This document shows, piece after piece, positions 12,654 to 32,197 of a stretch of DNA of 39,809 nucleotides. How positions within the stretch are numbered: position 1 is the first letter of the stretch; each line of letters starts with the position of its first letter. Below the pieces are notes generated by a model. That model searched no databases. It had not been told where the DNA came from and saw only the letters and a program-made list of their open reading frames with translations. Position numbers and translations under genes: made by a program. This DNA is from Flavobacteriales bacterium (lineage in GTDB: Bacteria; Bacteroidota; Bacteroidia; Flavobacteriales_E; Vicingaceae): contig JAESST010000410.1 of NCBI GenBank assembly GCA_016763995.1, forward strand, positions 1-39,809, given 5' to 3'.

Positions 12654-13790
12654 GTGAAGCTTGTCCTATTAACTAATTTTATCCCCCCTTATCGACTTTC
12701 ATTGTATCAAGGAATAGATCAAATCTTTGACGATTTTGAGATTCTTATTTCAACAGGAATGGAAAAAAACAGAAACTGGGAAGTCAATCACGAAGCACTC
12801 CAGGTAAGTATTCAAAAATCCATTAGCTACAGTAAAAATTGGAAGAATGAATTGGGCTTCTCTGAAAAGACAAGTATTCAACTCCCTTGGGACACTATAG
12901 GGCTATTAAAAAGAATCGATGCCGATGTTGTTATATCAGGTGAAATGGGCATTCGATCCTTTCTCTCTGCGCTCTATTGTAGTTGGTATAAAAAACCACT
13001 CATTCTTTGGTTAACACTTTCTGAACATACAGAGACTAATAAAAAAGGTGTGAGGATTTTATTGCGGAAATTTTTATTAAAAAAATCAACTACTGTATTA
13101 TGCAATGGAAAAAGTGGAGAAAGGTATTTACAAGCATTAGGCTATCAGAATAAAGTTTTTTATGCTCCTTATACTTCTGATTATAAAATAAATTCTAAAT
13201 CCTCTTTTCACTCAAAGAAGAAAATCTTATTCTCAGGACAGCTCATTCAAAGGAAAGGTATATCAGAAATGATAGACGCCATTGATCTCTTATTCCACAA
13301 TAACAAAGACCTGAAATTTGAATTAGTTGTCGCTGGAAGCGGTCCTCAAGAAGCCTTGTTTTATGCTTTATCAAAATGGGAAAAACAACTCACACTCACT
13401 ATGCTTGGAGCTTTGAAGTATGATGATTTAAAAAAGGTCTATCAAGACATTGATCTTTTCTTATTCCCAACTTTAGCCGACGAATGGGGTGTAGTTGTTA
13501 ATGAAGCCTTGTCTTCAGGAGTGCCTATATTGGGTAGCAAGTATAGCCAGGCTGTAGAGGAATTACTTGTTGAAAATCAAAATGGGTGGATTTTTGACCC
13601 GCTTGACACTAATGAGTTTGCTCAAAAATTAAAGACTGCGATTCACACAGAAAGTGCTAAACTTTTAAGCATGTCTCGTTTTGCTGCAGAAAGCATAAAA
13701 GACATTACGCCGAATAAAATTGCTCAAAACATTTACGATGCTGCGTTGTTTGCTACAAAAACATCTATTTCTGACAAACAGCATACTTAA
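12654..13790 (+). CDS. Glycosyltransferase family 4
   Basis: A 378-residue GT-B glycosyltransferase. The reading frame is open further upstream, but that part lies antisense over the chain-length gene and does not resemble the family. The GTG at 12654 yields the expected opening MKLVLLTNFIPPYRLSLY and is the preferred start. The C-terminal half has LFSGQLIQRKG (192-202), VVAGSGPQE (225-233) and the donor-site motif DEWGVVVNE (276-284), an EX7E variant that begins with Asp276. A GWIFDP motif follows at 311-316. It is the first gene of the plus-strand glycan block, divergent from the chain-length gene with 73 bases between them. The sugar transferred is unknown. Confidence 0.88.
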   Translation: MKLVLLTNFIPPYRLSLYQGIDQIFDDFEILISTGMEKNRNWEVNHEALQVSIQKSISYSKNWKNELGFSEKTSIQLPWDTIGLLKRIDADVVISGEMGIRSFLSALYCSWYKKPLILWLTLSEHTETNKKGVRILLRKFLLKKSTTVLCNGKSGERYLQALGYQNKVFYAPYTSDYKINSKSSFHSKKKILFSGQLIQRKGISEMIDAIDLLFHNNKDLKFELVVAGSGPQEALFYALSKWEKQLTLTMLGALKYDDLKKVYQDIDLFLFPTLADEWGVVVNEALSSGVPILGSKYSQAVEELLVENQNGWIFDPLDTNEFAQKLKTAIHTESAKLLSMSRFAAESIKDITPNKIAQNIYDAALFATKTSISDKQHT

Positions 13791-13859
13791 ATAGATTGTT
13801 TTCCTAGGCAAAAACTATCTTGGTTTCACTAATTTTACTATTCACGTTGATCTAAGCTT

Positions 13860-14765
13860 TTGAAGATTCCCATTCTAAAATCCCTTTGCTATTTTGATAT
13901 TTTTAATCATCCTCTAAAGAAGGAAGAACTCTTTAGATTATGTGGTTCCAATGGAGAAAGAGCTGATTTCGATAAGGCAATTCAGATCTTACTTCAAGAA
14001 CAAGCTTGTTTCGAATATAAAAACTTTTATGGCATCAGTCCCTCTATAAAAGAACAAATTAAAGAAAGGATAAAGAAAGAAGAATTCGCTAAATCCTATA
14101 TTGAGAAACTTCCTTTTTATACTCGAATTATAAAATCATTTCCTTTTGTGAGAGGGGTTTCCATTTCCGGATCCTTATCGAAAGGAGTGATGTATGAAAA
14201 AGGAGACATCGATTATTTTATTATTACTAAGAAAAATAGGTTATGGATTTGTAGAAGTTTATTAGTTGTATTTAAAAAAGTGTTTTTGCTAAACTCACGC
14301 AAATACTTTTGTGTGAATTATTTTGTTGATGAAGACAATACTCAGATAATCGATAAAAATATCTTTACAGCAGTTGAAGTCAGCCATCTTATTCCGACTT
14401 ATAATGAGGCTGTTATTCAAAAAATGAAAGATAACAATTCTTGGATTCAAGATTATTTTCCCAACTATTCCCCTTCCCCTTTCTTTCCTTCTTTAAAGGG
14501 GGAGGGACTTTTAAAACGAATATTAGAAGGCATTCTTGTAGGGCAACTTGCTGAACGATTAGATTTATTTCTAATGAGAGTCACCTATAAGAGGTGGACC
14601 AAGAAATTTAAAAACTTTAACCCTGAAAAGATGGAATTAACCATGCGTTCTAATCGTGGAATTTCAAAACATCACCCAAGCGACTATCAAACCAAAGTAC
14701 TTGCAGCTTATAAAGAAAGAACAGAAAAACTTAATATCGGAGATGAAGGTTTTATTTACTCATAG
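13860..14765 (+). CDS. Nucleotidyltransferase-fold protein of the glycan locus
   Basis: A 301-residue protein with a polymerase-beta-type nucleotidyltransferase core. An N-terminal winged-helix-like region (about 5-60) leads to SISGSLSKGVMYEKGDIDYF (101-120). Here Gly104-Ser105 and the pair Asp116/Asp118 match the GS...DxD metal-binding signature. The C-terminal half is helical and ends in a conserved-looking SKHHPSDYQTKVL segment. The only usable start is TTG at 13860, since the next ATG would remove the N-terminal domain. The last 23 bases overlap the start of the B12-type radical SAM gene. Possible roles are nucleotidyl transfer to a small molecule or protein; the substrate is unknown, and the context ties it to the neighbouring radical SAM enzyme. 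Confidence 0.78.
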   Translation: MKIPILKSLCYFDIFNHPLKKEELFRLCGSNGERADFDKAIQILLQEQACFEYKNFYGISPSIKEQIKERIKKEEFAKSYIEKLPFYTRIIKSFPFVRGVSISGSLSKGVMYEKGDIDYFIITKKNRLWICRSLLVVFKKVFLLNSRKYFCVNYFVDEDNTQIIDKNIFTAVEVSHLIPTYNEAVIQKMKDNNSWIQDYFPNYSPSPFFPSLKGEGLLKRILEGILVGQLAERLDLFLMRVTYKRWTKKFKNFNPEKMELTMRSNRGISKHHPSDYQTKVLAAYKERTEKLNIGDEGFIYS

Positions 14766-16164
14766 TTATTTCTTACGTTTTGACAAGAAACAATGGAAAC
14801 AACGGAAGCCCTATCCACCTTTGGCCACGATTCAAGCAGCATCTAATTTAAGAAAGGAAGGACATGAGGTTTCTCTATTTGATACCAACTTTGCTCATGG
14901 AGCTAATGAAGTAAGCCCTTATTTAAATGAAAAGCCTGATTTTCTGGTGCTTTACGATGATGGGTTTAATTACCTGACCAAAATGTGCTTGACCAATATG
15001 CGAGAAGCGGCTTTTGAGATGATTCAAATGGCTAAAAAGCAAGGTATAAAGGTTTTTGTTTCGAGTAGCGACTCTACCGATCATTTTGAACAATACCTGC
15101 AAAAGGGTGCTGATGCAATTATCCTAGGTGAGGCAGATGAAACTCTATTAGAATTGGTTAAGAGTCGAGAAAACTGGAAAACTTGCAAAGGTATTGCATA
15201 TCGGGAAGACGATTCTTTTGAAAAAACAGCCCCAAGAGCAAGCCTTACTAACTTAAGTGAATTACCCCTTCCTGCTTGGGATTTAATCAATATTAGACCG
15301 TACCAAGAAGCTTGGTCAATTCATGGATATTTTTCCATCAACTTGGCGACAACTAGAGGTTGTCCTTTTAAATGTAATTGGTGTGCTAAACCCATCTATG
15401 GTAATCGCTACAACAGTCGTTCTCCGGAACATGTAGTAAAAGAAATTCAGTTGATTCGTTCTTTATTTGAGTTCGACCATATATGGTTTTGCGATGATAT
15501 TTTTGGTTTAAAACCGAACTGGATTCAAGAATTCAATCAGGTTTTAATGAAAGAAAGTATCGTCATTCGTTATAAGATACAATCTAGAGCAGACCTTCTG
15601 GTAAAGGATGACACTGTTAAAAGTTTAGCAGAGTCAGGCTGTGATGAAGTATGGATTGGTGCAGAAATCGGTTCACAAAAAATATTGGATGCCATGGACA
15701 AAGGCACTTCCGTTGAACAAATTGAAGAAAGCACCTTACTCATGAAAAATCATAAAATTAAGCCCTGCTTCTTTTTACAATTTGGATATTTATCAGAGGA
15801 TTGGAACGACATCATGGCAACCAAAAACATGCTTTTCAAGTTGCTGCCTGCCGATATCGGAGTTTCTGTTTCTTACCCTCTGCCAGGGACTAAATTTTAC
15901 GACAAAGTAAAATCTGAACTGAACCAAAAAGCAAATTGGAAGGATTCTGATGAACTTCTATTGATGTATAAGGGAAGTTTCTCTCCTGAGTTTTATAAAA
16001 AATTACATCGATATATTCATAAGCTTTTCCGTGGGAAGCAGGCCTTATTGCAACTTCAGAAGGGGAAATTAATATATATATTCCGTTACAGTTATTTTAA
16101 GCTTTTCTCGACCTTTGATTACTTCCAAGTTCTTAGGATGAAAAATTCTGGAAAGGAATCATGA
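14743..16164 (+). CDS. B12-binding-type radical SAM protein (1 of 5)
   Basis: A 473-residue protein with an N-terminal cobalamin-binding-like Rossmann domain (about 1-140), a linker, and a radical SAM barrel with the cluster motif CPFKCNWC (Cys207, Cys211, Cys214). The SAM-contact region GAEIGSQ and a YPLPGTKFY motif, typical of BchE-like enzymes, follow. The B12 domain has GEADETLLEL but lacks the usual double glycine and any DxHxxG motif, so cobalamin, if bound, would not have a protein histidine ligand. The ATG at 14743 is chosen because it gives the opening MKVLFTHSYF shared with the paralogue at 21389. It overlaps the nucleotidyltransferase gene by 23 bases. Reactions in the family include methylation at unreactive carbons and ring formation; the substrate here is unknown. 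Confidence 0.9.
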   Translation: MKVLFTHSYFLRFDKKQWKQRKPYPPLATIQAASNLRKEGHEVSLFDTNFAHGANEVSPYLNEKPDFLVLYDDGFNYLTKMCLTNMREAAFEMIQMAKKQGIKVFVSSSDSTDHFEQYLQKGADAIILGEADETLLELVKSRENWKTCKGIAYREDDSFEKTAPRASLTNLSELPLPAWDLINIRPYQEAWSIHGYFSINLATTRGCPFKCNWCAKPIYGNRYNSRSPEHVVKEIQLIRSLFEFDHIWFCDDIFGLKPNWIQEFNQVLMKESIVIRYKIQSRADLLVKDDTVKSLAESGCDEVWIGAEIGSQKILDAMDKGTSVEQIEESTLLMKNHKIKPCFFLQFGYLSEDWNDIMATKNMLFKLLPADIGVSVSYPLPGTKFYDKVKSELNQKANWKDSDELLLMYKGSFSPEFYKKLHRYIHKLFRGKQALLQLQKGKLIYIFRYSYFKLFSTFDYFQVLRMKNSGKES

Positions 16165-16181
16165 TTCTTTAAGGTTTCACC

Positions 16182-17309
16182 ATGAGATTCAAATTAAAAT
16201 TTTGGCAATCAAAGATTCTTCTCGTGCTGGCGAGTTCTATATTTTCGTTATTGTTTGCAGAATTAGTTTTAAGGTTTATTAGCCCTCATGAAGTATATCT
16301 TTGTTCAGTCCCAGAAGTTGAAATGGAACGAAATAATAAGTTTCACAATTTCTTCAGTAGTATCGATTCTAGTTATCACTACTCCGTCAATGAATTTGGG
16401 TACCGATCATCCACATTATTTGCCAAAAATAGATATGGTATTTTAGCTGTAGGAGGTAGTACAACTGATTGCATCGGTTTAGCAGATAAGGAGACTTGGC
16501 CGTGGCTGTTAGAACAACAGCTTAATGAATCGTCGCCCAATGAAAAATTTACGGTTGGAAGTATTGGAGTCCCTGCTTTTAATTCCTTTCACCATGTTTT
16601 GCAAGTCAAGCATATTATTCCCCAATTGGATAACATTAAGATGGTAGTTCTGTTAGTCGGAATAAACGATTTTTTGCGATTCTTACAATTGGAGAAGGAC
16701 GATTTAATCCCAGATGAGAAAACGTTACTGCATCAAACTTTTGTGAGGCACCCAAGAAAAACCCATGAACATTGGTTTCAACAAACTGAATTATGGGCTC
16801 ATCTAAGAGATGCTGTTAACCTTATTAGAAAAGTTTACGAAGTGGAAAATATGGAATTTGACTTATCCACGAAACTTGCTGAATATGAGACTGCGATTAA
16901 AATAAATTCACTCCCAGACCTTGAGCCTGCAATGAAAGTCATGTCAAATAACATTCTTAAGATCAACAAAATATGTGCCGAAAGAAAAATAAAATTAGTA
17001 GTCATCACCCAGCCTGTTCTATGGCACAAAAACATGAGCAAAGAAGAAATTAAAGTTTCTAGTTATGGCAAACCTATTAAAAATCGGAAAAGTTATTCTG
17101 ATGAAACCATGGAAGAAGGCATGAACATTTTTAATCAGCAACTTTTAAAAATCGCAGATCAAAACAACATTTATTCCATCGATTTAGCGAATCAATATCC
17201 TAAAAACACCACAGTATTCTTTGATCATTGTCACTATAATAAAAATGGATCAACTTTGGTATCAGAACTTATATTCAAAGAATTAAAAAATATATTAGCC
17301 CAAGAATAA
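16182..17309 (+). CDS. Membrane-anchored SGNH/GDSL hydrolase-fold protein
   Basis: A 375-residue protein with one N-terminal transmembrane helix (about 11-31) that probably anchors a periplasmic catalytic domain. SGNH blocks are visible: GGSTTD with nucleophile Ser93, GVPAFNS (block II region), VGIND (159-163) with Asn162, and DHCH (348-351) with catalytic Asp348 and His351. Family members remove or transfer acyl groups on carbohydrates, so O-acetylation or deacetylation of the glycan is likely. It starts 17 bases after the radical SAM gene and closes the plus-strand block; its stop codon is 1 base from the stop codon of the convergent methyltransferase gene. Confidence 0.87.
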   Translation: MRFKLKFWQSKILLVLASSIFSLLFAELVLRFISPHEVYLCSVPEVEMERNNKFHNFFSSIDSSYHYSVNEFGYRSSTLFAKNRYGILAVGGSTTDCIGLADKETWPWLLEQQLNESSPNEKFTVGSIGVPAFNSFHHVLQVKHIIPQLDNIKMVVLLVGINDFLRFLQLEKDDLIPDEKTLLHQTFVRHPRKTHEHWFQQTELWAHLRDAVNLIRKVYEVENMEFDLSTKLAEYETAIKINSLPDLEPAMKVMSNNILKINKICAERKIKLVVITQPVLWHKNMSKEEIKVSSYGKPIKNRKSYSDETMEEGMNIFNQQLLKIADQNNIYSIDLANQYPKNTTVFFDHCHYNKNGSTLVSELIFKELKNILAQE

Positions 17310-17310
17310 C

Positions 17311-17976
17311 TCACTTCCTCCGAATTCTAAAAATATAGTTTTCTTCTCCTCGTTTCTTAACCTGGAGCTCCAAATCGAAGACAAATTGCTTACAGTCAGC
17401 CATGCCTTTAATATGTTCTATTTCGCAATCTTCTGACAAAATCATATATACCTCCGACCTGCCATCAAGATAATCACCTAACTGACTAAAAAGTTTTTCA
17501 AAATAGTCAAAATTGACTCCACAAAACCAAGCCTCTTCTGCTCTATTTTTAGGAGCCTTAGGATAATAAGGGGGATTAATAATGATGTAATCGAAAGTTT
17601 GTTGCGATATCTTTTCAAAGAGATCTGAAAGGATAAGCTCTAGTTTTACTGCATTCTTTGTTGCATTTAATCCAACATTTTCAATTGCTGCTGGATTAAT
17701 GTCTGAAGCCAGTACCTTCGCTCCCTTTTTTGCCGCTAAGGTGCTAATCATTCCTGTACCACAACCCAGCTCTAATAAGCTTTTCCCTCTTAAGTCTAAG
17801 TCCTCTATAAATTCTAATAAAAGCTTCGTACTAATTGTGAAATAGGGATAAAATACTCCAGGTAAAATAATCCCCTTAATCTGTCGGTAATTGTATTTCC
17901 TTGGCTTTTCGAAATACCATTTCGCCCAAATTTGAAGTGGTTTAGATATAATTCTTTTAAATATTTTTCTTAGCAA
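17311..17976 (-). CDS. Class I SAM-dependent methyltransferase with NPPY motif
   Basis: A 221-residue methyltransferase of the MTS/PrmC-like type. The SAM-binding motif is LLELGCGTG (67-75), the acidic SAM-ribose contact is in ASDINPAA (90-97), and NPPYY (134-138) is the motif used by enzymes that methylate planar nitrogen atoms. A basic N-terminal extension (1-35) may contact membrane or acceptor. The start is TTG at 17976, preceded by AAGGA, because no ATG occurs before the fold begins. It is the last gene of the right glycan block, 81 bases after the radical SAM gene. The substrate is unknown; a sugar amine or a protein glutamine is possible. Confidence 0.82.
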   Translation of the reverse strand: MLRKIFKRIISKPLQIWAKWYFEKPRKYNYRQIKGIILPGVFYPYFTISTKLLLEFIEDLDLRGKSLLELGCGTGMISTLAAKKGAKVLASDINPAAIENVGLNATKNAVKLELILSDLFEKISQQTFDYIIINPPYYPKAPKNRAEEAWFCGVNFDYFEKLFSQLGDYLDGRSEVYMILSEDCEIEHIKGMADCKQFVFDLELQVKKRGEENYIFRIRRK

Positions 17977-18057: not shown

Positions 18058-19572
18058 CTATTCTCCATAAAACCCTTCTATTTCAGGTTGACGGTATTTC
18101 CAAATCTTATGCATCGCTTTGATTTCATATGGAAAATGATAAAAGCCTGTTTTATACCTCCATCTAGCAGCTGTTCGCAACATTGTCTTCTTCAACCCCT
18201 TTATTCGATAATCAGAATTTGTTGGATAATAGCCATTTAATACTACTTCAAAGTTTTTAATCTTATTAATCATTTTAGCTGTTAACCAAGGAGTTAACGG
18301 ATTTTTCCTTAAATCAAAATTTTCCCAAGAGGGATTTAACCAATCTTCTAATTTTTCTGGAAATTCAAATCCTGCCTTTGTGATTTGCTCAAACAATTCT
18401 GAGCCTTCAGATGGAACTGGGCTATATAAATAAATAATAATTTCTGTATTGGGATTCAATACTTTTATCTCTTTTATAAAAGCAATATCCGAATCAATCT
18501 GCGCCATCACTTTCTCCTCACTTTCTCCTGGCATTCCCAAAACAAAAGAGTATTCAGGTATAATTCCTACTTCACCCATTCGAACTGCAAAAGATTTAAT
18601 TTGAGCTGCCGTCTGAGTGCCTCCCTTATCCATTTGCTTTAACACCTCATCACTTCCAGTTTCAGCTCCAAAGAAAATCATTTCACAACCTGCTTCCTTC
18701 ATTAGCTGCAAGTCTTCATCACTATATTTATCGATTGTATCAATTCTTCCTTCTCCCCACCACCTGATGTTGTCGTTTAGCACCAATTTAGAAAACTCTA
18801 CTACTCGTTTTTTTGAAGTAAAAAAATTATTATCGTGAAACTCAATCGCATCTAGTCCATAATTCTCTTTCAGCCATTTTACATCTTTGTAAATGTTCTC
18901 CGCAGACTTCCCCTTCCATCTGGCGTTATAAATCGGCACTACTGCGCAAAAAGAACAAGTAAATGGACACCCTAAACTTGAATGATAAGCCATGGTTTTA
19001 TTTCCCATAAACGTTTTTTGCAAATAATCATCTATGCCATAGAATTGATCATAATATTTATAGGGAAGTTGTGGTAAACCATCCTGATCTTGTAGCTCCT
19101 CTTTTCTTGTTTTATGAATTAATCCTTCTTTTAGATAAATAAGATTCTTGATCTCTTCAACTGAAGTATTACTTTCTAGAGCATCTAGTAATTGAGGAAA
19201 TGTATTGTCTCCGGGCCCACTAACAACATAATCTACATATCCGCTTTTTAATACAACTGGATGTTGATTTGTTGCAAAATATCCGCCCCAAATAACTGTT
19301 ACATCAGGAAACATTTCTTTTACCTTTCTGCTAATCGGAATCGCTTGTTTTAATTGAGGGCCTGGCATTACAGTTACTCCAAAATATTTTACACCACCTT
19401 CAAGGTATCCCTTAATCTTTTCCCAAGGATCTTCTTCTAGATTCCCATCGACAAAAATAACCTCATAATTTTCATGAATAGAGGCTCCTACTTGCAATAT
19501 AGAATTAGGAATACGATGCTTCCACTTAGCACTACGGGGGTTAAATAGAAGGACTTTATTATTCTTATTCAT
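18058..19572 (-). CDS. B12-binding-type radical SAM protein (2 of 5)
   Basis: A 504-residue protein from the ATG at 19572, preceded by AAAGAG; a longer frame to 19635 exists but would add 21 residues and overlap the upstream gene by 71 bases. The N-terminal B12-type domain (about 5-150) has VIWGGYFAT and the GPGDNTFPQLL variant of the GEGE motif. The radical SAM cluster motif is CPFTCSFC (Cys202, Cys206, Cys209), followed by FGAETGSDE and a SPVPSEGS motif in place of the usual PxPGT. The ATG overlaps the stop of the upstream membrane-protein gene by 8 bases. The C-terminal extension of about 100 residues is rich in Trp, Tyr and Lys and may bind a lipid-linked substrate. Confidence 0.9.
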   Translation of the reverse strand: MNKNNKVLLFNPRSAKWKHRIPNSILQVGASIHENYEVIFVDGNLEEDPWEKIKGYLEGGVKYFGVTVMPGPQLKQAIPISRKVKEMFPDVTVIWGGYFATNQHPVVLKSGYVDYVVSGPGDNTFPQLLDALESNTSVEEIKNLIYLKEGLIHKTRKEELQDQDGLPQLPYKYYDQFYGIDDYLQKTFMGNKTMAYHSSLGCPFTCSFCAVVPIYNARWKGKSAENIYKDVKWLKENYGLDAIEFHDNNFFTSKKRVVEFSKLVLNDNIRWWGEGRIDTIDKYSDEDLQLMKEAGCEMIFFGAETGSDEVLKQMDKGGTQTAAQIKSFAVRMGEVGIIPEYSFVLGMPGESEEKVMAQIDSDIAFIKEIKVLNPNTEIIIYLYSPVPSEGSELFEQITKAGFEFPEKLEDWLNPSWENFDLRKNPLTPWLTAKMINKIKNFEVVLNGYYPTNSDYRIKGLKKTMLRTAARWRYKTGFYHFPYEIKAMHKIWKYRQPEIEGFYGE

Positions 19573-21316
19573 AAAACTCTTTCGTAAAATAGATAGGAGT
19601 GGTCCAGATTCGATTTGCACCTTTATATTGTCCAATTAATAATTCTTGTAATTCAAACTTTGGTAATTTTATTTTCAATATCTCCTTTTCCTTGGGGAAA
19701 ACAAAATCATTATTTATAAAACTGATCTCTTCCCCTTTATTATTCAACATCTCCTTATCTCTAGGAATATAATGCATAAAAAAATTAACCGTTTTGTCTC
19801 CAGAAATATTTTCTATGATAATACTTTTCGTCTCCTTCTCAAAATAAAATTCAAACCCTCCAAACTTATTTACACCGTTTAGAGATTCCGCCTTTCCTCT
19901 ATATTCCCTAACCGTAAGTGATTGATTTATTGATACACTCTCTTTATTAAAAAAGGTAGCCAAATGCTTGTTAGTCCAACTATTTGAATTTGAATTCCAG
20001 TCAGGAACCATGAATGTTTTAGGATGTATTGTTAACCTTGGTAAAACTGCATTTTTTTCTTCCATATCAGCTAAGTATTTGAACCTCCAAATAGATTCTT
20101 CTTGCATTTGTTTTGCTTTTCCCTCTAACAAATCTGAATAAACAATTTTAAGATTTTCAGATTTTGCAAATATTAAAAAAACTAGCCCAACCCAAAAAAT
20201 AATTTTCCTATTTGATTCTAAAATCGAATCAATAAATATTTGATTTAAATATAAGCCTGTGACAATTAAAGATAAAAGGAATAAAATAAAATATATATTT
20301 AAAACCCTAGGCAATACTGTTCCTAGAGTTCCAAACGAATATAAATAAATGAACAAACCTCCAATAATAAGAGATAAAATAAATGAAATAGTCAACAAAT
20401 ATGATTTCCTAGAAATTTTCAAATCAGGAGATTTAAAAAAGTTTACCCCAAGAGTTATCAATATGGGAATCATAATCATTCCTTTTATGAATAACCAATC
20501 CCACATTAAATTGAATGTTGTAGGCAAGATTGACGCAACTACATTTTCAAGGTGATTTTCTAAATACCTAAAGGACTCTCCAGTTATTCTTCTAGTAGTT
20601 CCTGGACTTGTAATGACTAAATAGTTTGAATAAGCTGCAACTGCTAAAAATAAAAAAGACCAATATTTTTTTGATTTATTCCCTAACATTTTGAAAACAC
20701 AAAACACTATTGATCCATAAAGTACAAAAACCATAAAAATTTCGTTACTCCCGCAAACAGCAAATATTAATATGCACAATACTACTCTCTCATAAAGATT
20801 AAGACTTTTTAAATAGCCTTTCACAAAAAGTGCATAAACCCATATTAAACCTGAAAGTGGAAAAATATAAACCGTAGATCCTGAATACCAATAAATGATG
20901 TTTACCTGTGGAATAAATAGTAAAATGAGACCAATAATTATTAAAGTCAATTTCCAAATATTGTCCCTTTGGAAGAGGTTACTTATTAAAACCAGATAAC
21001 GAATAGAAAAAGTCAATAAAAGAAGATCAACTATTGGGTGCAACTTAGCAAACCAAACCTTCATGAAAATATCAGGTGAAATTGAAAAGAAGAATGCATT
21101 AAAGTAACGACCTATATAATTGTTATATGAATAAATAATCTTATCAAGATATCCAAGATGAGTGTTATAAGTAGCAAAAAACAAATCATCTGCTGCTCCC
21201 GAAAAATTGAAAAGGGAGATATAAAAAAAAGGTAGAATAAAGAGAATGAAAAAAACGAAATAGAAAATAGAATCGCTTTTAAAAAAGCTATTTTTTATTC
21301 TAGAAATTATAGCCAT
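19565..21316 (-). CDS. Multi-pass membrane protein, probable GT-C type glycosyltransferase (DUF6056-like)
   Basis: A 583-residue protein with about ten to twelve hydrophobic helices in residues 18-400 and a soluble C-terminal part (about 400-583). The first periplasmic loop has GAADDLFFA with Asp43-Asp44 and then GRYFNAFF (69-76). This layout is that of GT-C glycosyltransferases that use polyprenyl-phosphate sugars, and the pattern resembles DUF6056 proteins. If so, it would add a sugar on the periplasmic side after flipping. The assignment rests on topology and the acidic loop only. The gene is 72 bases after the preceding radical SAM gene and overlaps the following one by 8 bases. Confidence 0.75.
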   Translation of the reverse strand: MAIISRIKNSFFKSDSIFYFVFFILFILPFFYISLFNFSGAADDLFFATYNTHLGYLDKIIYSYNNYIGRYFNAFFFSISPDIFMKVWFAKLHPIVDLLLLTFSIRYLVLISNLFQRDNIWKLTLIIIGLILLFIPQVNIIYWYSGSTVYIFPLSGLIWVYALFVKGYLKSLNLYERVVLCILIFAVCGSNEIFMVFVLYGSIVFCVFKMLGNKSKKYWSFLFLAVAAYSNYLVITSPGTTRRITGESFRYLENHLENVVASILPTTFNLMWDWLFIKGMIMIPILITLGVNFFKSPDLKISRKSYLLTISFILSLIIGGLFIYLYSFGTLGTVLPRVLNIYFILFLLSLIVTGLYLNQIFIDSILESNRKIIFWVGLVFLIFAKSENLKIVYSDLLEGKAKQMQEESIWRFKYLADMEEKNAVLPRLTIHPKTFMVPDWNSNSNSWTNKHLATFFNKESVSINQSLTVREYRGKAESLNGVNKFGGFEFYFEKETKSIIIENISGDKTVNFFMHYIPRDKEMLNNKGEEISFINNDFVFPKEKEILKIKLPKFELQELLIGQYKGANRIWTTPIYFTKEFYE

Positions 21317-22774: not shown

Positions 22775-23565
22775 TTCCGCTCTGCAACTATTATGTAATG
22801 ATCTGCCTTCGATGAAAGAAAACTTAGATTACCAAAAATACGTTCTAAAAGATATAAGCCTTTTAAAGCCCATTTGTTTCTCTTAAAAAATAATTCTGTG
22901 TAAGATGGAGGCAAAAAAATAGCAATTGGCTTCTTCAACAAGACTTTATAATTGCTGTATAATAATTTACTAACAGTTGCTGGGTGATGATAATAGGTCC
23001 TAATCGATTCTCCATTTACATTAACCTCCAAAAATTCTTCCCTATTCCTTCTTCTTATCTGATTGAATTTCCCGGTTAAGAAATGAAACAAATCTGCTAT
23101 AAAACAATGATTCGGCATAATAACAGAAATGAGTAAATCTCCTACTTTCTGTTGCGCCGCAGTTTCATTAATAAAACAAAGCAACTGCTCTTCTGAAAGA
23201 CAGTTTAATCCTCCAAAATTTGAAAACACCGCTTCAGACTTGCCTATATTGTCATCAATTGATATATCAATAAATTTTCTTTGATAAATATCTAATTCCG
23301 GATTTCGTTTCTGAGCAACTTCAAGCATTTTCTCAGAACCATCTGTTGCAGTTACTTGATGTCCTCGCTCTGTAAATAATTTAGCATCATAACCTGTTCC
23401 ACAGTTAACTTCAAATACTCGCTTCGGCTTCTTAAAAAAATTGATTTTATTCAACCAGAAATAAACTCGATCTCGTTGAAGTTTTCCGATCTCCGAAAAG
23501 GTAAATTCATTATCGTATAGCTTTGCTGCGGAATCAAAAGAAGGATCCATAGTGCGATTCCCCAT
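22771..23565 (-). CDS. Class I SAM-dependent methyltransferase
   Basis: A 264-residue methyltransferase. The SAM-binding motif is FEVNCGTGYD (51-60), with Asn in place of the more common Gly/Ala, and the acidic contact is in TATDGS (72-77). The second half (about 130-260) holds the acceptor-binding region with hydrophobic and aromatic stretches. This type methylates small molecules or sugar hydroxyls. The ATG at 23565 starts 3 bases after the stop of the SPASM gene; a second in-frame ATG lies at 23550. It overlaps the radical SAM gene that follows by 4 bases, so the two are likely co-translated. Confidence 0.88.
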   Translation of the reverse strand: MGNRTMDPSFDSAAKLYDNEFTFSEIGKLQRDRVYFWLNKINFFKKPKRVFEVNCGTGYDAKLFTERGHQVTATDGSEKMLEVAQKRNPELDIYQRKFIDISIDDNIGKSEAVFSNFGGLNCLSEEQLLCFINETAAQQKVGDLLISVIMPNHCFIADLFHFLTGKFNQIRRRNREEFLEVNVNGESIRTYYHHPATVSKLLYSNYKVLLKKPIAIFLPPSYTELFFKRNKWALKGLYLLERIFGNLSFLSSKADHYIIVAERK

Positions 23566-24654: not shown

Positions 24655-25828
24655 TTATAATCTTTTTAGACCTACTTACCACTAGTTTTGCTAATATCAA
24701 TCTACATACTATTCCACCCAACAAAGCTCCTACGATTCCATACATGCTCACTAGTAATAATGATATTACAATATTACAGACGGCAGCAATTACATTATAA
24801 CGTAACAGTTGTTTTTCGTTTTTGTGCTTTAAAAGAATTTGACTCTCTATAAAATAGGCATACAAAGGATAAAGATAGGCGAAAAACAAGGCTATATAAA
24901 CTAAAGGTAACTCAATTAAATAGACGTATTTCAAGCCATAATAAAGGATAATAGAAAACACAATGGTCGCTACAAAACCGACTTGAAGGTACAATTTTTT
25001 TAATTTTTGGATGTTCTTTCCCTGCCAGCGATAGATGTTTTTTTGAAAGGGACCCAATAATATTGCGGAAAAGCTTTGCCCTAATAGTAAAAAACTAAGT
25101 ATAATTTGATAGCTAGCTAAGTCTTCTTCTTGAAGAAGGTAGGTTACCACATATAAATCTCCTTTTGTTTGTAACAAGCCTGCGATGGATAGTCCAAAAA
25201 ATGGAAAGGCAAGTAAAAGTTCTGTCCGCAACATTTTTAATGAGAATGAAGTCCTTTCCCATTCGTTAAGTAGAGGTAATAGTACAAGACATTTAACTCC
25301 TGAAGAAAGCACAAAAAGATAAATAAGATCTGTCAATACCATCTCTTCAGAGAAGAACAAAACACAACTTATGGCTGTTGTTATTGCAGCCATTTCAGAA
25401 ATAATCGACCAAGTATATTTCCTATAGAATTGAATAATGGGCTCAAATAAAAAGCTAAACCACTTAAAGAAGACCCAAAGTAATAACGGAAAGAAATGGA
25501 CTTGAAATACTGGGATCAACATCAATAGAATTACGATCAGAATCAAGAAGGGAAGGCGAGCGTAACTTGCTCTTGACCACTGTTCCCCAATGGTATTAGG
25601 GCTTAATGAAAATTCTCTTAATAAAAAGGGCTTTTGTCCCCAATTGAAAAGGCTTGTCAACAACTCAACACCCACCAAGAGAACAACAAAACTTCCCCAC
25701 AAGTCCACATCAAAGAGTCGAATAATGAGTAAAGATACAAGGCTAGTGTGTATTGGTCGGAGCAAAAAACTAATAGTCTCTAATCCAACATATTTAGACC
25801 TTCTTATTGCCTTTTTTCGAGTCTTCAA
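24638..25828 (-). CDS. Wzx-type flippase, MOP superfamily (second of two)
   Basis: A 396-residue protein with about 12 transmembrane helices. The opening pattern, a basic N-terminus, a first helix and then RLFDVDLWGSFVVLLVGVEL (37-56), is that of polysaccharide flippases of the MOP superfamily. It is shorter than the flippase at 10216 and shares little visible sequence with it. Its place in the middle of the radical SAM block suggests that it exports the product made there, either the same lipid-linked glycan or a second one. It overlaps the lipoprotein gene upstream by ATGA and the SPASM gene downstream by 17 bases. Confidence 0.87.
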   Translation of the reverse strand: MKTRKKAIRRSKYVGLETISFLLRPIHTSLVSLLIIRLFDVDLWGSFVVLLVGVELLTSLFNWGQKPFLLREFSLSPNTIGEQWSRASYARLPFLILIVILLMLIPVFQVHFFPLLLWVFFKWFSFLFEPIIQFYRKYTWSIISEMAAITTAISCVLFFSEEMVLTDLIYLFVLSSGVKCLVLLPLLNEWERTSFSLKMLRTELLLAFPFFGLSIAGLLQTKGDLYVVTYLLQEEDLASYQIILSFLLLGQSFSAILLGPFQKNIYRWQGKNIQKLKKLYLQVGFVATIVFSIILYYGLKYVYLIELPLVYIALFFAYLYPLYAYFIESQILLKHKNEKQLLRYNVIAAVCNIVISLLLVSMYGIVGALLGGIVCRLILAKLVVSRSKKIINDNDS

Positions 25829-26988
25829 AGCAGCAAGTTGGGTTCATTCAATACAGTTTCTCTAGCACTAGATGTACTTCGTATAACTTGATAAGGAGAA
25901 TACGTTTCTACTTCAGTCCTGTGATATAAGTTCCCAAGTTCTGGAAACTCATGATTTATATGGGTTGAAAGATTAGATAATCTCGACTTCACTTCTTGCT
26001 CAGTTATGCTCCACTCTCCTGATAATCTCTTTGTAGAAGGCTCCATAAAACGAATGTAGAGTTTTTCTAATTCAGCATGTTGCGAAATATCATTGAAATC
26101 AATTTCTGTATTTAAACTCGCTCTATACGCTTCTAAGATTGTTCTGTTCTGATTGATAACACTATCAAACTGAGGGGGAGAATAATAGCCAGGAATAGCT
26201 GTAAGTGCCGCAATAGCAGTTTGAATGTTAACTTCATGACACCACAAACACTTCGCTGGTTTACCGGCAATGGACAGTGTCGTATCTGCTCCAGTAATTA
26301 ACTCTTTATTCGCATTGTAAATACCAAAACGCAGTTGCCCATTTGGCATAATGTCCATTACTTCATTTTCCTTAACAACATGGCTCGAATCAGAAAGAGA
26401 TCCTATTATTTCTTCCGCTAGATAACCCAATGAATGAATGTTTCCATCCTCTTGAGGTATATTAATTATTCGCTCTCCAAAAGCAACTGCAGATTCAATG
26501 ATAGCTGCCTTTTTTTGCAAAAAAGTATAATCAGACACAAAATTATTTAGTACGGAAGGCATCCCTACTATCTTATAATAATGGTTCGAATTATTAAAAA
26601 TACTGACGACAAATCTGCCTGCATCAATTCCTCCTGTTACGCTATACTCTTCGCTTTGCTTGTAAATACTAATAAGTTCTTTTAAAGATTGAAGAGCAGT
26701 TTGATCAAAGCCAAATTCTTCTACATCGATTTGAATTCTTTGGGTGTCCAACCAACTTGTCCCTTTTGCCCAAGAACCTTTCTCTAATTGTGCCCCTAAA
26801 TAAGAAAAGCACCATTGAAGCCCAGTTTCAAACTCAGCCTTAATCTCCACATCATTTTGATATTGATAGAGAATAATTTCATAGTCTAAATTGGGTGCTA
26901 TCGCAGGTTCTTCTTTCTCATCTTCACAAGAACTTATGAGTATCGAAAAAATCATTAACAGAGTAAGCAGTTTTAATGAAATTCTCAT
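25825..26988 (-). CDS. Lipoprotein with a single CxxCH motif, function unknown
   Basis: A 387-residue lipoprotein whose signal ends in LISSC with Cys21 as the lipidated residue. It contains one CLWCH motif (Cys247, Cys250, His251), which would be a covalent c-type haem site if used. There is no typical cytochrome c fold around it that I can recognise: the expected downstream Met ligand is not obvious. The remainder is mixed alpha/beta with many Asn and Glu residues. The gene is locked into the right glycan block, overlapping by 4 bases both the radical SAM gene upstream and the flippase gene downstream. It could be an electron-transfer partner or a structural factor at the periplasmic face; neither is shown by sequence. 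Confidence 0.8.
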   Translation of the reverse strand: MRISLKLLTLLMIFSILISSCEDEKEEPAIAPNLDYEIILYQYQNDVEIKAEFETGLQWCFSYLGAQLEKGSWAKGTSWLDTQRIQIDVEEFGFDQTALQSLKELISIYKQSEEYSVTGGIDAGRFVVSIFNNSNHYYKIVGMPSVLNNFVSDYTFLQKKAAIIESAVAFGERIINIPQEDGNIHSLGYLAEEIIGSLSDSSHVVKENEVMDIMPNGQLRFGIYNANKELITGADTTLSIAGKPAKCLWCHEVNIQTAIAALTAIPGYYSPPQFDSVINQNRTILEAYRASLNTEIDFNDISQHAELEKLYIRFMEPSTKRLSGEWSITEQEVKSRLSNLSTHINHEFPELGNLYHRTEVETYSPYQVIRSTSSARETVLNEPNLLL

Positions 26989-28412
26989 TCTTTTGCTAAA
27001 ACATGTTTGTAATTTCCCAATGCAAATTTAAGCGTTTCCCAAAAATTTCTTTTTTCAGACTTGATATAAACGTGGAAATAAATCAAGCCAAACCAAGCGC
27101 GAAACAATAAGTTTGGAGGTAAATTGATCAATTTTTTAATCAAAGGAAAGGTCCAAGGCCAAAGCACTGCAGTTTGGAAGAATTTCTGCAAATTTTGCAT
27201 TTCTTTAATGTTAGGCAACTCCAATTGCGACGAAAGAAAGAAAGATTTATCTAGTTCTTCTACATTAAACGTTGGACTTAAATACCCCTTTGCATAGGCA
27301 TACTCTGACAACTCTGTTCCTGGAAAGGGAGAAAAAATAGAACACCATGGATAATCTGCCTTAATTTTTATGTTGAGTTCTACTGTGGAAAAAGCATCTT
27401 CCAAGGTTTCGTCGGGTAAGCCCAAAATGTTGTAGGTTCTGAAACTAATGCCTGCTTCATGCAATAGCTCAGCCGCATTTACAATTTGATCATTGTCCAA
27501 TTGCTTCTTCAACACCTGATTTCTCAAATCTTCGTTTCCTGATTCTACACCAAAAAAGACTGACTTACAACCTGCTTTAGCCAAATTGAACGCATAATCT
27601 CTATCGGCCGCCACCAAATCAGCACGAACTAAGCAAATGAATTCTAAGCCCACCTTTTCCTTGTAGACCTCTAAAAATTCATATAGCCACTTCCGCTTCA
27701 TTCCAAAGACATCGTCTGCAAAATAGAGAACTTCTGTATTCGTCTGTTCTTTTAATCGAATGCATTCTTCAATCACCTCATCAATCTCTCTAATTCGAAC
27801 ATACTTCCCTTTGCCGTCATACAATTCACGCATGGCATCTTCAAAACAAAAAGAACAGTGGAATGGGCATCCTCTTGAAGTGATTACATTTCGAACCTTT
27901 CCGCTTCCTTTATTTATTAATTTAGCATATAATTCTCTATCTGGAAACGGATAATCATCTAATCGATCGGCTAAGTTTCGTAATGAGTTATGAGTGGTCT
28001 CCTTCCCAGTAGTAAATGATAAATTAGGAACATGATGAAAACCTTTACCATCATCTATTAAATTCATGATTTCTAATAAGGATTCTTCTCCTTCTCCTCG
28101 AATCAAATAATCTACTCCTTCTTCTAACACAAACTTTGGGAAAAAAGTAGGGTGTGCTCCTCCAAAAATATTCTTTATGTCAAATTTCTCTTTGATTTCT
28201 CTCGCTATTTTCAATGCCCAAGAATGACTCCCACTCATGATAGAAAAGCCAACAAAATCAGGTTTAAATTTCTCAATCTTTTCTGCAAAATCGCTAAGAG
28301 CATGACCTATAACAAGGTCGCATTGATGACCATGTGGCTTGAGCATAGACGATAAATACATCGGCCCAACGAACTCATAATCCATATTTTGAAGAAAAAG
28401 AAGCTTAGCCAT
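26985..28412 (-). CDS. B12-binding-type radical SAM protein (4 of 5)
   Basis: A 475-residue protein. The B12-type domain (about 1-130) has the clearest signature of the five: NIFGGAHPTFFP (81-92) and IRGEGEESLLEIM (104-116). The cluster motif is CPFHCSFC (Cys182, Cys186, Cys189), followed by FGVESGNED and SPFPGTELSEY, a classic BchE-like set. A C-terminal helical extension (about 390-475) has hydrophobic and aromatic stretches that could meet a membrane. No DxHxxG motif is present. The stop overlaps the lipoprotein gene start by 4 bases, and the start overlaps the GT87 gene stop by 8 bases. The reaction is unknown. Confidence 0.92.
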   Translation of the reverse strand: MAKLLFLQNMDYEFVGPMYLSSMLKPHGHQCDLVIGHALSDFAEKIEKFKPDFVGFSIMSGSHSWALKIAREIKEKFDIKNIFGGAHPTFFPKFVLEEGVDYLIRGEGEESLLEIMNLIDDGKGFHHVPNLSFTTGKETTHNSLRNLADRLDDYPFPDRELYAKLINKGSGKVRNVITSRGCPFHCSFCFEDAMRELYDGKGKYVRIREIDEVIEECIRLKEQTNTEVLYFADDVFGMKRKWLYEFLEVYKEKVGLEFICLVRADLVAADRDYAFNLAKAGCKSVFFGVESGNEDLRNQVLKKQLDNDQIVNAAELLHEAGISFRTYNILGLPDETLEDAFSTVELNIKIKADYPWCSIFSPFPGTELSEYAYAKGYLSPTFNVEELDKSFFLSSQLELPNIKEMQNLQKFFQTAVLWPWTFPLIKKLINLPPNLLFRAWFGLIYFHVYIKSEKRNFWETLKFALGNYKHVLAKE

Positions 28413-29709: not shown

Positions 29710-31095
29710 TTATTTGAGAATAAAATAAGCTTCTCTCAAGTGCATCTTAAATTCAGTCCTGTTGCGAATCCTAAACAAGATTTTTAAAAGATAACTCGGA
29801 CGAAAATAAAAAGAGAGATAGGCTTTTCGCTTCAGCTTTTGCAATTCTTCTCGTGATATTTTTCCAGTTCCCATGGTTACTTCATCTCCTGATTGGTCCA
29901 TAATCTTAACCGAATCATCAATGATTCCTTGTTCAATTGCTTGTTCCCTAAACGAAGTATTTGAACGTGGAACAGCCACATTAAAGGAGGCATAATCTGC
30001 CTTGATTTCTTTAGCAAATTTTAGCGTTCTTAAAATGGACTCCTCGCTTTGTCCTGGTACTCCAATTAAGAAAGTTCCCAATCGTTTTATTCCTGCTTTT
30101 GCTGTTAAGTCGAAAGTTTCACGGATCTGATCTAAGGTGTAGTTCTTTTTGTACTCGTTTAAATATTCCTCATCTGCGAACTCTACCCCAAACATAATCA
30201 GATTGCAACCAGATTTTTTCATCAATGTAATCTCTTCCTCGCCTAAAACATCCACTCTCGAAAAACACATCCAAGAAAGCCCGTAGTCGGCTTCAATCAT
30301 CCAGTTCAACACTTCTCGTGTTACTGCTTTTGATTGAAAAAAGGTTTGATCAGAAAAGTAGATGTATTTATAATTTAAGCGTTTCAGTTCTTTTAGCTCT
30401 AAAATGATACTTTCTGCGGAACGGGTAATGTAGGGCATCGTAGACATGATGCAAAAAGTGCAAGGGTAAGGACAGGCATAGTTGGTTAACACTGTAGCCA
30501 TTGGCATTGCATTCGCAAATGGCATTCTGTAATTTCCTTGTATAAATAAATCGTGACGCGGAACTTCCAACTCAAGCTTCACTGTTCTTTTTTCTGATTT
30601 CGTTTCTGTTCCGTTCTCACCTCTATAAACAATACCTGCTGCGGCTTCAAAATCTTTCTCTATCCACTTTTTTGCTCCATCATTAAAGAAATTTGTAACG
30701 ATTACATCTAACCAAGAATAGATCTTAAACAGTTCTTCGTGATCTTCAAGAAGGGCATCTCCACTTGCTATTATTTTCACAGAAGGGAGTGTTGATTTCA
30801 CTTGTGTAAAAAACGCAACATCTTCAACCAAAGAAACAGAGCCTACCTGCGTAATAATAAAATCAGGATGAAAATCGACAAGCTTTTCTAAAGCTTCTGT
30901 TTTATTAATATTCTCAGCAATACAATCCATTGCTTTTAATTCATACTCCTCTCTTTCAAAAAAACTACTTTGAATTAGTAGGTCTATAGGTTGCGGAAGA
31001 TAATATGCTTTAGAGACTTTCGAACAATAGTAATCCCGAATGTATATTTTCCTTCCGGGAGGATTAATCAATAAGATTTTCTTCTTATTCAGCAT
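29710..31095 (-). CDS. Radical SAM protein with degenerate B12-type domain (5 of 5)
   Basis: A 461-residue protein. The radical SAM cluster motif is CPYPCTFC (Cys208, Cys212, Cys215), with FGVEFADEE where the others have GxE(S/T)G and VPRSNTSF where the others have a PxPGT-like motif. The N-terminal domain has the Rossmann opening ILLINPPGRK and the general strand order of B12-binding domains, but the GEGE motif is replaced by VTNFFNDGAKKWI and the GG loop by IASGDAL. Cobalamin binding is therefore doubtful. It may act as a cobalamin-independent radical SAM enzyme. It overlaps the GT9 gene by 11 bases. Confidence 0.88.
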   Translation of the reverse strand: MLNKKKILLINPPGRKIYIRDYYCSKVSKAYYLPQPIDLLIQSSFFEREEYELKAMDCIAENINKTEALEKLVDFHPDFIITQVGSVSLVEDVAFFTQVKSTLPSVKIIASGDALLEDHEELFKIYSWLDVIVTNFFNDGAKKWIEKDFEAAAGIVYRGENGTETKSEKRTVKLELEVPRHDLFIQGNYRMPFANAMPMATVLTNYACPYPCTFCIMSTMPYITRSAESIILELKELKRLNYKYIYFSDQTFFQSKAVTREVLNWMIEADYGLSWMCFSRVDVLGEEEITLMKKSGCNLIMFGVEFADEEYLNEYKKNYTLDQIRETFDLTAKAGIKRLGTFLIGVPGQSEESILRTLKFAKEIKADYASFNVAVPRSNTSFREQAIEQGIIDDSVKIMDQSGDEVTMGTGKISREELQKLKRKAYLSFYFRPSYLLKILFRIRNRTEFKMHLREAYFILK

Positions 31096-32197
31096 TGCTT
31101 GCTAATTTAAGAGATCGAGATAACATGAATGCGGCCTCTACAACTCTATTTTTATCCAATCCATGCAAGCAATCTATTCTATTAGAACAGGCTCTTGCTA
31201 CTTTTGATTTAGGATGAATAAAACAAGGGGAGCATTCCATTTTCGTACTAATGTTTACCATTCTATAAGAATCAGAATAGCCTACTAATTTTGCTGAAGT
31301 TGGCCCCCAAATAGCAACTGTAGGAACGTTAAAGTAATGAGCCAAATGTAAAGGACCAGAGTCATTTGTAATTAACATTTGGCAATTCTTTAATACATGA
31401 ATAAGGCCTTCCAACGATAATTTCCCGGCAGTATTTTCATAAGATACTCCCAATTCATCTAGCATTTTTGCTAATTGATTTGTGTAGGCTAATTCCTTTT
31501 GCAAGCCTGTCAATAAAAACTCAAAAGCTGAGTCTCTTTGTTGGAGTTGTTGAATGATTTCTGCAACGTATTCTATTGGATATTTCCTTTGGGGCAAATA
31601 CTCTCCTGCATTCACGTTGATCACGATCTTTTCCCCTTCGCGAATTGTTTCAGGTTGAGATACAGTTTGCTTATTCAATTCAAATATTTCAGCTATCGCC
31701 TGTATCGCAGGCTTATTCTCTAATGAAATAAATTTTTGATTTTTTTTACTCCTATTTTCTTTCTCAAAAGTAAAAGAAGAGCATGACTTTCCAATGCTGC
31801 AAATCAATCGAAAAGTTCCCGAAAAATTAGAAATCCTTTCTAGGTCAATAATCTTAATTCCTTTCATCTTCCAAACACGGAATACCGTTGTAATTAAGTC
31901 TAATAGCATGTAGAAAAGGTTCTCACTTCGAACGCAATGTGCCTTTATTCCCAGCAGTTCACATATTTTTTTATCCTTGGAAAGAGTAATCAATTCAATA
32001 TTTGACAAAGGGAGATCAGTATTTTTCAAAGTACTCGCCAATCGAACAATACTACCCATTCCAAAAAACTTGATAGCTATAACTTTATCGTTTGAATCTT
32101 TTTGATTGAAAAACCATGGAACAATCCAAGAACAAATGCGGTAGATTGGAGAAAATAAACCATCTAGTAAAATAAGATTTGAAATTTTTCTCGCCAT
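31085..32197 (-). CDS. Glycosyltransferase family 9 (heptosyltransferase-like)
   Basis: A 370-residue GT-B enzyme of the ADP-heptose:LPS heptosyltransferase family. The N-terminal loop IKFFGMGSIVRLAS (42-55) replaces the usual (R/K)xx.GD(V/L) acceptor loop. The donor-site signature is TNDSGPLHLA (277-286) followed by VPTVAIWGPTS. A C-terminal cysteine group (Cys322, Cys325, Cys337, Cys343) is common in this family. It is the first gene of the twelve-gene right glycan block; 58 bases separate it from the lipoprotein gene upstream. The donor may be heptose or another sugar. Its presence hints that the block acts on a lipid-A-core-like or other lipid-linked acceptor. Confidence 0.9.
   Translation of the reverse strand: MARKISNLILLDGLFSPIYRICSWIVPWFFNQKDSNDKVIAIKFFGMGSIVRLASTLKNTDLPLSNIELITLSKDKKICELLGIKAHCVRSENLFYMLLDLITTVFRVWKMKGIKIIDLERISNFSGTFRLICSIGKSCSSFTFEKENRSKKNQKFISLENKPAIQAIAEIFELNKQTVSQPETIREGEKIVINVNAGEYLPQRKYPIEYVAEIIQQLQQRDSAFEFLLTGLQKELAYTNQLAKMLDELGVSYENTAGKLSLEGLIHVLKNCQMLITNDSGPLHLAHYFNVPTVAIWGPTSAKLVGYSDSYRMVNISTKMECSPCFIHPKSKVARACSNRIDCLHGLDKNRVVEAAFMLSRSLKLASNAE

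What the first reader, a model, noticed from the sequence alone, without database searches (positions are those of the whole stretch)
12654..32197. Five B12-type radical SAM proteins and one SPASM enzyme in a single surface-glycan locus
Proteins at 14743, 18058, 21389, 26985 and 29710 each have a CxxxCxxC cluster motif preceded by a B12-type Rossmann domain, and 23569 adds a SPASM enzyme. They are interleaved, mostly with overlapping genes, with GT9, GT87, a GT-C-like protein, a flippase and two methyltransferases. B12-dependent radical SAM enzymes are known to methylate unreactive carbon atoms or to close rings. A glycan or glycolipid with several such modifications would be unusual. The linkage is from gene order and overlap; the product is inferred.
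Basis: partly seen in the sequence, partly recalled or inferred. Interest (0 to 1): 0.85.

Follow-up and report, generated by a model that had tools for sequence, protein, structure and literature searches.

The report
Modular radical-SAM surface-glycan locus in Bacteroidota
A bacterium related to Flavobacteria carries a gene set, also found in many other Bacteroidota, in which several vitamin-B12-type radical enzymes are built into what looks like a surface-sugar assembly line, suggesting a widespread but still unidentified, chemically unusual cell-surface glycan or glycolipid.

Summary
Six radical SAM genes (five of cobalamin type, one SPASM) are interleaved with glycosyltransferases, a flippase-like protein and two methyltransferases. 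R2, R3 and R4 pass Pfam's B12-binding cut-off. R1 is sub-threshold, and R5 is supported only by full-length alignment to HpnJ and OxsB. The five share only 22-30% identity, so they are not recent tandem copies.
The locus is not a one-off. Related loci occur across Bacteroidota and show layers. Second, R2 and R3, found only in genomes that also have R1. Third, optional cassettes: SPASM, and GT9-R5-GT87-(R4). Fourth, interchangeable glycan genes, with a MOP-type or an ABC exporter but never both. Also missed was a lipoprotein with an invariant C-x-W-C-H haem-c motif (25 of 25 homologues).
Most likely reading: assembly and export of a lipid-linked surface glycan or glycolipid whose building block is carbon-modified by cobalamin-type radical SAM chemistry. 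Substrate and product are unknown. Minimal loci without nearby glycosyltransferases leave a modified-lipid reading open. No description was found in the paper library searched.

The parts
12654..13790 (+). GT4-type glycosyltransferase (GT4b)
   Evidence: Pfam Glycos_transf_1 89.5 bits on the 12390 ORF; a relative sits next to the same cluster in L049
13860..14765 (+). NT: winged-helix plus MNT-fold nucleotidyltransferase, near-obligate partner of R1
   Evidence: Pfam NTP_transf_2 in 20 of 28 family members (window copy E=0.016); D116 and D118 invariant; AF2 pLDDT 90.7; Foldseek prob 0.99 to MntA, also AadA/ANT; present in exactly the 24 R1 genomes plus one weak hit
14743..16164 (+). R1: cobalamin-type radical SAM protein, the nucleus of the system
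   Evidence: Radical_SAM 66.8 bits, B12-binding sub-threshold; CPFKCNWC; PDB relatives 9ccb, AprD4, OxsB, CysS
16182..17309 (+). GDSL/SGNH-type hydrolase or O-acyl transferase-like, optional
   Evidence: Lipase_GDSL_2 31.0 bits, just under cut-off; homologues in 13 of 80 loci
17311..17976 (-). MTa: class I SAM methyltransferase, usually paired with R2
   Evidence: Pfam MTS 63.3 bits; next to R2 in most complete loci
18058..19635 (-). R2: cobalamin-type radical SAM protein (likely true start at the internal ATG near 19572)
   Evidence: Radical_SAM 62.2 and B12-binding 35.2 bits; 74-86% identity in relatives; found only in R1 genomes
19565..21316 (-). GTC: multi-TM membrane protein, GT-C-like (unproven)
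   Evidence: no Pfam or NCBIfam hit; 9 predicted TM segments
21389..22774 (-). R3: cobalamin-type radical SAM protein
   Evidence: Radical_SAM 82.7 and B12-binding 57.1 bits; AprD4, OxsB, TokK, CysS relatives; 51-83% identity orthologues; 11 of 11 genomes with R3 outside an R1 locus carry R1 elsewhere
22771..23565 (-). MTb: class I SAM methyltransferase, usually between R1 and R3 in relatives
   Evidence: Methyltransf_25 38.3 bits; in 70 of 80 R3 loci
23569..24654 (-). SPASM radical SAM enzyme, optional
   Evidence: Radical_SAM 77.7 and SPASM 37.7 bits; orthologues over 50% identity in 14 of 80 loci
24638..25828 (-). Flip2: MOP-type flippase-like membrane protein
   Evidence: 11 predicted TM; no hit of its own, 2 of 16 homologues hit Polysacc_synt; never together with the ABC exporter in complete loci
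25825..26988 (-). CytLP: lipoprotein with invariant C-x-W-C-H haem-c motif
   Evidence: motif in 25 of 25 homologues, lipobox Cys and CxWCHE invariant; AF2 pLDDT 88, no significant PDB fold match
26985..28412 (-). R4: cobalamin-type radical SAM protein, optional
   Evidence: Radical_SAM 82.7 and B12-binding 72.4 bits; AprD4, OxsB relatives; full-length orthologues in L036 and L066
28405..29643 (-). GT87 membrane glycosyltransferase
   Evidence: Pfam GT87 67.7 bits
29710..31095 (-). R5: HpnJ/AprD4-like radical SAM protein, optional
   Evidence: Radical_SAM 75.5 bits; HpnJ 163 bits, AprD4 model 92 bits; PDB AprD4 E=7e-32; sits in a GT9-R5-GT87 cassette in L036, L047, L049, L066
31085..32197 (-). 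GT9 (heptosyltransferase-type) glycosyltransferase
   Evidence: Pfam Glyco_transf_9 73.9 bits

Best explanation
This is a member of a widespread, modular Bacteroidota pathway that builds and exports a lipid-linked surface glycan or glycolipid containing one or more carbon-modified residues. Shown: the gene families, the layered co-occurrence, and the association with glycosyltransferases and exporters. Inferred: NT nucleotidylates a sugar or other small precursor. R1 then alters an unreactive carbon of that activated substrate (C-methylation, deoxygenation or ring change), and MTb and MTa methylate heteroatoms. R3 and R2 add further carbon modifications, and in this genome SPASM, R4 and the sugar-deoxygenase-like R5 add more. 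GT4, GT9 and others extend the unit on a lipid carrier, a MOP-type or ABC exporter moves it across the inner membrane, and GT87-like enzymes may add sugars on the outer face. CytLP acts in the periplasm as a haem-c redox or binding protein in the MOP-flippase version.
For: In 296 sampled Bacteroidota genomes R1 occurs in 24, NT in exactly those 24 plus one weak hit, R2 (over 500 bits) in 14, all within the 24, and R3 (over 450 bits) in 6, all within the 24 (Fisher p=2e-34 for NT/R1 and 6e-18 for R2/R1, not corrected for kinship). R1-bearing genomes span 13 family codes. Genomes whose R3 sits outside an R1 locus carry R1 elsewhere in 11 of 11. In 45 loci with R1, MTb and R2 in one stretch, 33 have a recognised GT and 31 an exporter, and MOP and ABC never occur together (0 of 31, p=0.0026). 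On an R1 tree the exporter type changed at least 8 times (4 in complete loci) while the core stayed, and CytLP follows the MOP type in independent pairs (median p=0.004; 0.031 in complete loci). Variable cargo is glycan decoration. Precedents: GenK, GenD1 and AprD4 act on sugar carbons in aminoglycosides (PMC5461906); Fom3 methylates a cytidylylated substrate (PMC8158854).
Against: No substrate or product is known. L042 and L044 hold the core without a recognised glycosyltransferase, and several R1-MTb or R3 loci have no glycan genes in the stretch read. Flip2 and GTC have no confident family assignment. The nearest NCBIfam models include lipid and tetrapyrrole enzymes (BchE, HpnJ, ladderane). 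R1 and R5 lack an over-threshold B12-binding hit. The nucleotidylation step rests on analogy; NT's fold also resembles protein-AMPylating MntA.
Confidence: 0.58

Rival explanations
1. The radical SAM core modifies a lipid or terpenoid (a carrier lipid, or a hopanoid- or ladderane-like membrane lipid), and the glycosyltransferases only decorate or anchor it. The conserved product is a lipid; the sugars vary.
For: Best NCBIfam resemblances include HpnJ (R5 163 bits), BchE (R3 160 bits) and the ladderane lipid model TIGR04072 (R3 142 bits). Minimal loci L042 and L044 lack recognised glycosyltransferases. In some Saprospirales R1-MTb and R3 are unlinked to glycan genes. A constant core with variable GTs fits a constant aglycone.
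Against: All scores are far below those models' cut-offs. No terpene cyclase, squalene or ladderane-type genes were seen in the locus by Pfam. HpnJ and AprD4 themselves are linked to sugar or cyclitol moieties. The exporters and decorations fit glycans.
Confidence: 0.22
2. The locus makes a secreted small glycoside (a specialised metabolite, aminoglycoside- or nucleoside-like) rather than a surface glycan; NT could be a self-protection enzyme like the aminoglycoside nucleotidyltransferases.
For: Sugar-acting radical SAM relatives (AprD4, and GenK/GenD1 from the literature) belong to aminoglycosides; NT's fold resembles AadA and ANT.
Against: Flippase-like protein, GT9, GT87, PMT_2, Wzy_C in G020 and polysaccharide deacetylase belong to surface glycans. 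No polyketide, peptide-synthase or 2-deoxystreptamine genes were recognised. NT is a near-perfect partner of R1 even in minimal R1-MTb loci, more like a pathway enzyme.
Confidence: 0.08
3. The radical SAM genes have several unrelated roles and are together only because glycan loci collect passenger genes.
For: R4, R5 and SPASM are sporadic (2, 4 and 14 of 80 loci) and the five R proteins are distant from one another.
Against: NT, R1, R2 and R3 track each other across the phylum and even when unlinked; R5 sits in a repeated GT9-R5-GT87 cassette.
Confidence: 0.07

Closest known systems
Aminoglycoside radical SAM enzymes (GenD1, GenK, AprD4)
   Same: Several radical SAM enzymes acting on sugar carbons within glycoside pathways; AprD4 is the best solved relative of R5 and R4 (PMC5461906).
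   Different: Soluble antibiotics, no flippase or lipid carrier; R proteins score far below the AprD4 model (R5 92 vs 500 bits).
Fom1/Fom3 (fosfomycin)
   Same: A cytidylylation step makes the activated substrate on which a B12 radical SAM methylase works (PMC8158854), a possible logic for NT-R1.
   Different: NT is an MNT-fold protein with a winged helix (relation to Fom1 not tested); no phosphonate gene was seen in the locus; the analogy is untested.
Hopanoid HpnI/HpnK/HpnJ (cyclitol ether)
   Same: Genes required for a cyclitol-ether headgroup on a lipid (PMC5462960); R5 aligns to HpnJ almost full length (163 bits).
   Different: R5 is far below the HpnJ cut-off of 577.6 bits; no hopanoid genes seen here.
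Wzx/Wzy and PglK-type glycan loci
   Same: GTs plus MOP-type or ABC exporter; here also a neighbouring divergent operon with a MatE-family exporter and two Wzy_C proteins.
   Different: Such loci are not defined by cobalamin radical SAM enzymes, an MNT nucleotidyltransferase or a haem-c lipoprotein.

Membership tests
Radical SAM superfamily | CX3CX2C cluster motif in a Radical_SAM domain | tested here: met
   six proteins over Pfam cut-off, motifs
Cobalamin-dependent radical SAM subgroup (R2, R3, R4) | N-terminal B12-binding domain | tested here: met
   35.2, 57.1 and 72.4 bits against 32.1; OxsB/TokK/CysS relatives for R3 and R4
Cobalamin-dependent radical SAM subgroup (R1, R5) | N-terminal B12-binding domain | tested here: inconclusive
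   R1 19.8 bits, R5 none; aligned to OxsB over the N-terminal half
Class B methyltransferases | methyl transfer via methylcobalamin | not testable with these tools
   no substrate known
HpnJ (TIGR03471) | score over the curated cut-off | tested here: not met
   R5 163 vs 577.6 bits
BchE (TIGR02026) | score over the curated cut-off | tested here: not met
   R3 160 vs 481 bits
Ladderane-type lipid rSAM (TIGR04072) | score over the curated cut-off | tested here: not met
   R3 142 vs 360 bits
AprD4 (NF033070) | score over the curated cut-off | tested here: not met
   R5 92 vs 500 bits
B12_rSAM_oligo (TIGR04295) | score over the curated cut-off | tested here: not met
   R1 93 vs 400 bits
SPASM-domain radical SAM | C-terminal SPASM domain over cut-off | tested here: met
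   PF13186 37.7 vs 21.5 bits
MNT-fold nucleotidyltransferase (NT) | NTP_transf_2 / Pol-beta fold with DxD | tested here: met
   Pfam in 20 of 28 members, D116/D118 invariant, Foldseek prob 0.99 to MntA though E=0.014
MOP flippase (Flip2) | Polysacc_synt/MatE family match | tested here: inconclusive
   2 of 16 homologues at best E=2.5e-4, window copy none
c-type haem protein (CytLP) | CXXCH in an exported protein | tested here: met
   25 of 25 homologues, lipobox Cys invariant; Cytochrom_C_asm genes present in the genome; haem itself not testable
Cytochrome P460 | sequence or fold match | tested here: inconclusive
   fold match E=1.2; hhalign prob 2 against P460 and 36 against a sub-threshold P460-like pair

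The most novel reading that the evidence does not exclude
A previously undescribed class of surface glycan or glycolipid, shared by many Bacteroidota, whose core residue is made by a dedicated nucleotidyltransferase plus serial cobalamin radical SAM enzymes and in one version handled by a haem-c lipoprotein in the periplasm. Radical carbon chemistry would then be a standing part of bacterial cell-surface assembly rather than of antibiotics and cofactors alone.
Probability: 0.4. Interest if true: 0.88.

Novelty: new variant of a known kind. Interest (0 to 1): 0.7.

Why it matters
If true, carbon-modified sugars made by B12 radical SAM enzymes are a recurring feature of the surfaces of a major phylum, would tie surface chemistry to cobalamin supply, and would give a tractable set of orthologues in cultured species for discovering new radical SAM reactions. 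The near-perfect NT-R1 pairing names a minimal enzyme pair to test first.

Tried and rejected
Recent tandem duplication of the radical SAM genes: rejected, 22-30% identity. Known NCBIfam equivalogs: all far below cut-off. The five as one fixed unit: rejected by synteny. CytLP as cytochrome P460: only weak signals. CytLP, NT and Flip2 sequence profiles against the PDB: nothing significant. Literature searches for this gene set or for B12 radical SAM in surface glycans found no description in the library held.
Full report
OBSERVATION. All six proteins carry a Radical_SAM domain well over the Pfam cut-off and a CX3CX2C motif. B12-binding is over cut-off in R2 (18058), R3 (21389) and R4 (26985), sub-threshold in R1 (14743) and absent by Pfam in R5 (29710). 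R1 and R5 still align over their N-terminal half to OxsB, and R5 to HpnJ. The SPASM domain of 23569 is over cut-off. The R proteins are 22-30% identical to each other, so they are distinct families rather than recent copies. Genes mostly overlap or lie a few bases apart. Six of the genome's 27 Radical_SAM matches lie here.

Upstream of R1, overlapping it by 23 bases, is a winged-helix plus nucleotidyltransferase protein (NT, 13860-14765). Pfam NTP_transf_2 is found in 20 of 28 family members, the DxD residues are invariant, the AF2 model has pLDDT 90.7, and the best folds are MntA and aminoglycoside adenylyltransferases (Foldseek E-values 0.014 and above, probability 0.99 for MntA). The protein at 25825 is a lipoprotein whose C-x-W-C-H haem-c motif is present in 25 of 25 homologues. 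Its AF2 model is confident (pLDDT 88) but matches no solved fold significantly; a P460-like relation is only hinted at. The genome has cytochrome c assembly genes. Haem binding itself is not shown.

DISTRIBUTION. In the window's own GTDB family R3 orthologues over 50% identity occur in 6 of 46 genomes, a patchy pattern. A scan of 84,980 species genomes with R3 returned 424 relatives; the best 80 loci were kept and read. They come almost wholly from Bacteroidota: Flavobacterium, Kordia, Aquimarina, Winogradskyella, Tenacibaculum, Roseivirga, Marinoscillum, Aureispira, Chitinophaga and others. Around R3 the usual order is NT-R1-MTb-R3, then variable genes, then R2-MTa. NT is in 63, R1 in 68, MTb in 70, R2 in 41, Flip2 in 32, MTa in 32, CytLP in 25, SPASM in 14, R5 in 4 and R4 in 2 of the 80 loci; flanks are cut at 10 kb, so genes at the far end are undercounted.

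CO-OCCURRENCE. In a sample of 296 genomes of the phylum, nearly all over 90% complete, R1 is in 24 and NT in exactly those 24 plus one weak hit. R2 (over 500 bits) is in 14, all inside the 24. R3 (over 450 bits) is in 6, all inside the 24. CytLP is in 2, both with R3. Fisher p-values are 2e-34 (NT/R1) and 6e-18 (R2/R1), uncorrected for kinship, though the R1-bearing genomes span 13 family codes. In eleven genomes where R3 sits outside an R1 locus, all eleven carry R1 elsewhere, so the dependence is not just linkage. R2 is missing from some genomes with R1 and R3.

MODULES. In 45 loci with R1, MTb and R2 in one stretch, 33 have a recognised glycosyltransferase and 31 an exporter inside. The MOP-type flippase and the ABC exporter never occur together (p=0.0026). 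CytLP goes with R3 (21 of 21), Flip2 (19 of 21) and GT87 (15 of 21) and never with the ABC exporter. On an R1 tree the exporter type changes at least 8 times, and CytLP follows the MOP type in independent pairs (median p=0.004; complete loci only: p=0.031). Loci cut by contig ends add noise to the first figure. R5 recurs as GT9-R5-GT87, with R4 behind it in L036 and L066. A further B12 radical SAM family, 27-29% identical to R2, appears in Kordia, Aquimarina and G020 loci. The variable genes are GT2, GT4, GT9, PMT_2, polysaccharide deacetylase, GNAT, FkbM, sulfotransferases and acyltransferases.

HOW IT MOST LIKELY WORKS. Shown: families, layering, association with glycan genes. Inferred: NT activates a small precursor by nucleotidylation; R1 alters an unreactive carbon; R2, R3 and the optional enzymes add more; MTa and MTb methylate heteroatoms; GTs extend; the exporter flips a lipid-linked unit; membrane GTs may add sugars outside; CytLP works in the periplasm. 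Precedents for the parts exist: GenD1, GenK and AprD4 on sugar carbons (PMC5461906), Fom3 on a cytidylylated substrate (PMC8158854), and hpnI/K/J required for a lipid cyclitol ether (PMC5462960). R5 and R4 have AprD4 as best solved relative, so deoxygenation is as plausible as methylation for them.

WHAT SPEAKS AGAINST IT. L042 holds NT-R1-MTb-R3-CytLP-R2-Flip2-MTa and L044 an even smaller set, with no recognised GT. In Saprospirales MAGs R1-MTb and R3 lie apart from GTs in the stretches read; in G046 the pathway is split over three contigs, one with R2, CytLP, Flip2 and GT87. A modified lipid or aglycone therefore stays possible. Flip2 and GTC lack confident assignments.

NOVELTY. None of the R proteins passes an NCBIfam equivalog cut-off, and no paper in the library searched describes the set; most subscription papers are not in that library. 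The chemistry class is known; its use as a conserved, modular part of Bacteroidota surface-glycan loci appears undescribed. Filed as a new variant of a known kind, because the product is unknown.

Noticed in passing
5825-12580 (-): Divergent operon next to the finding: WecG, GT4, two Wzy_C (O-antigen ligase/polymerase-type) proteins, a MatE-family exporter and a Wzz-like protein with 2 predicted TM segments; related genes in the same order sit beside the radical SAM cluster in L049.
   Followed up: partly
L027:3161-4579; L070, L071, L072, L073, L079, L098, L102: A further B12 radical SAM family, 27-29% identical to R2, in glycan loci of Kordia, Aquimarina and G020; the G020 copy is in a stretch with a Wzy_C protein.
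   Followed up: no
L046 4003-6840 and about 20 other loci, mostly Flavobacterium: The cluster lies just downstream of a conserved 945-957 aa gene that looks like DNA polymerase I (by its start, from memory), suggesting one stable chromosomal site in that group.
   Followed up: no
   Followed up: no
L139/L140 (G331) and L137 (G315): Distant Bacteroidota families carry R3 with R1 in rearranged orders, in G331 spread over about 18 kb.
   Followed up: no
G183:C28:23095-23811: The only NT-profile hit in a genome without R1 in the phylum sample, weak (E=2.7e-21) and within a 669 aa frame.
   Followed up: no
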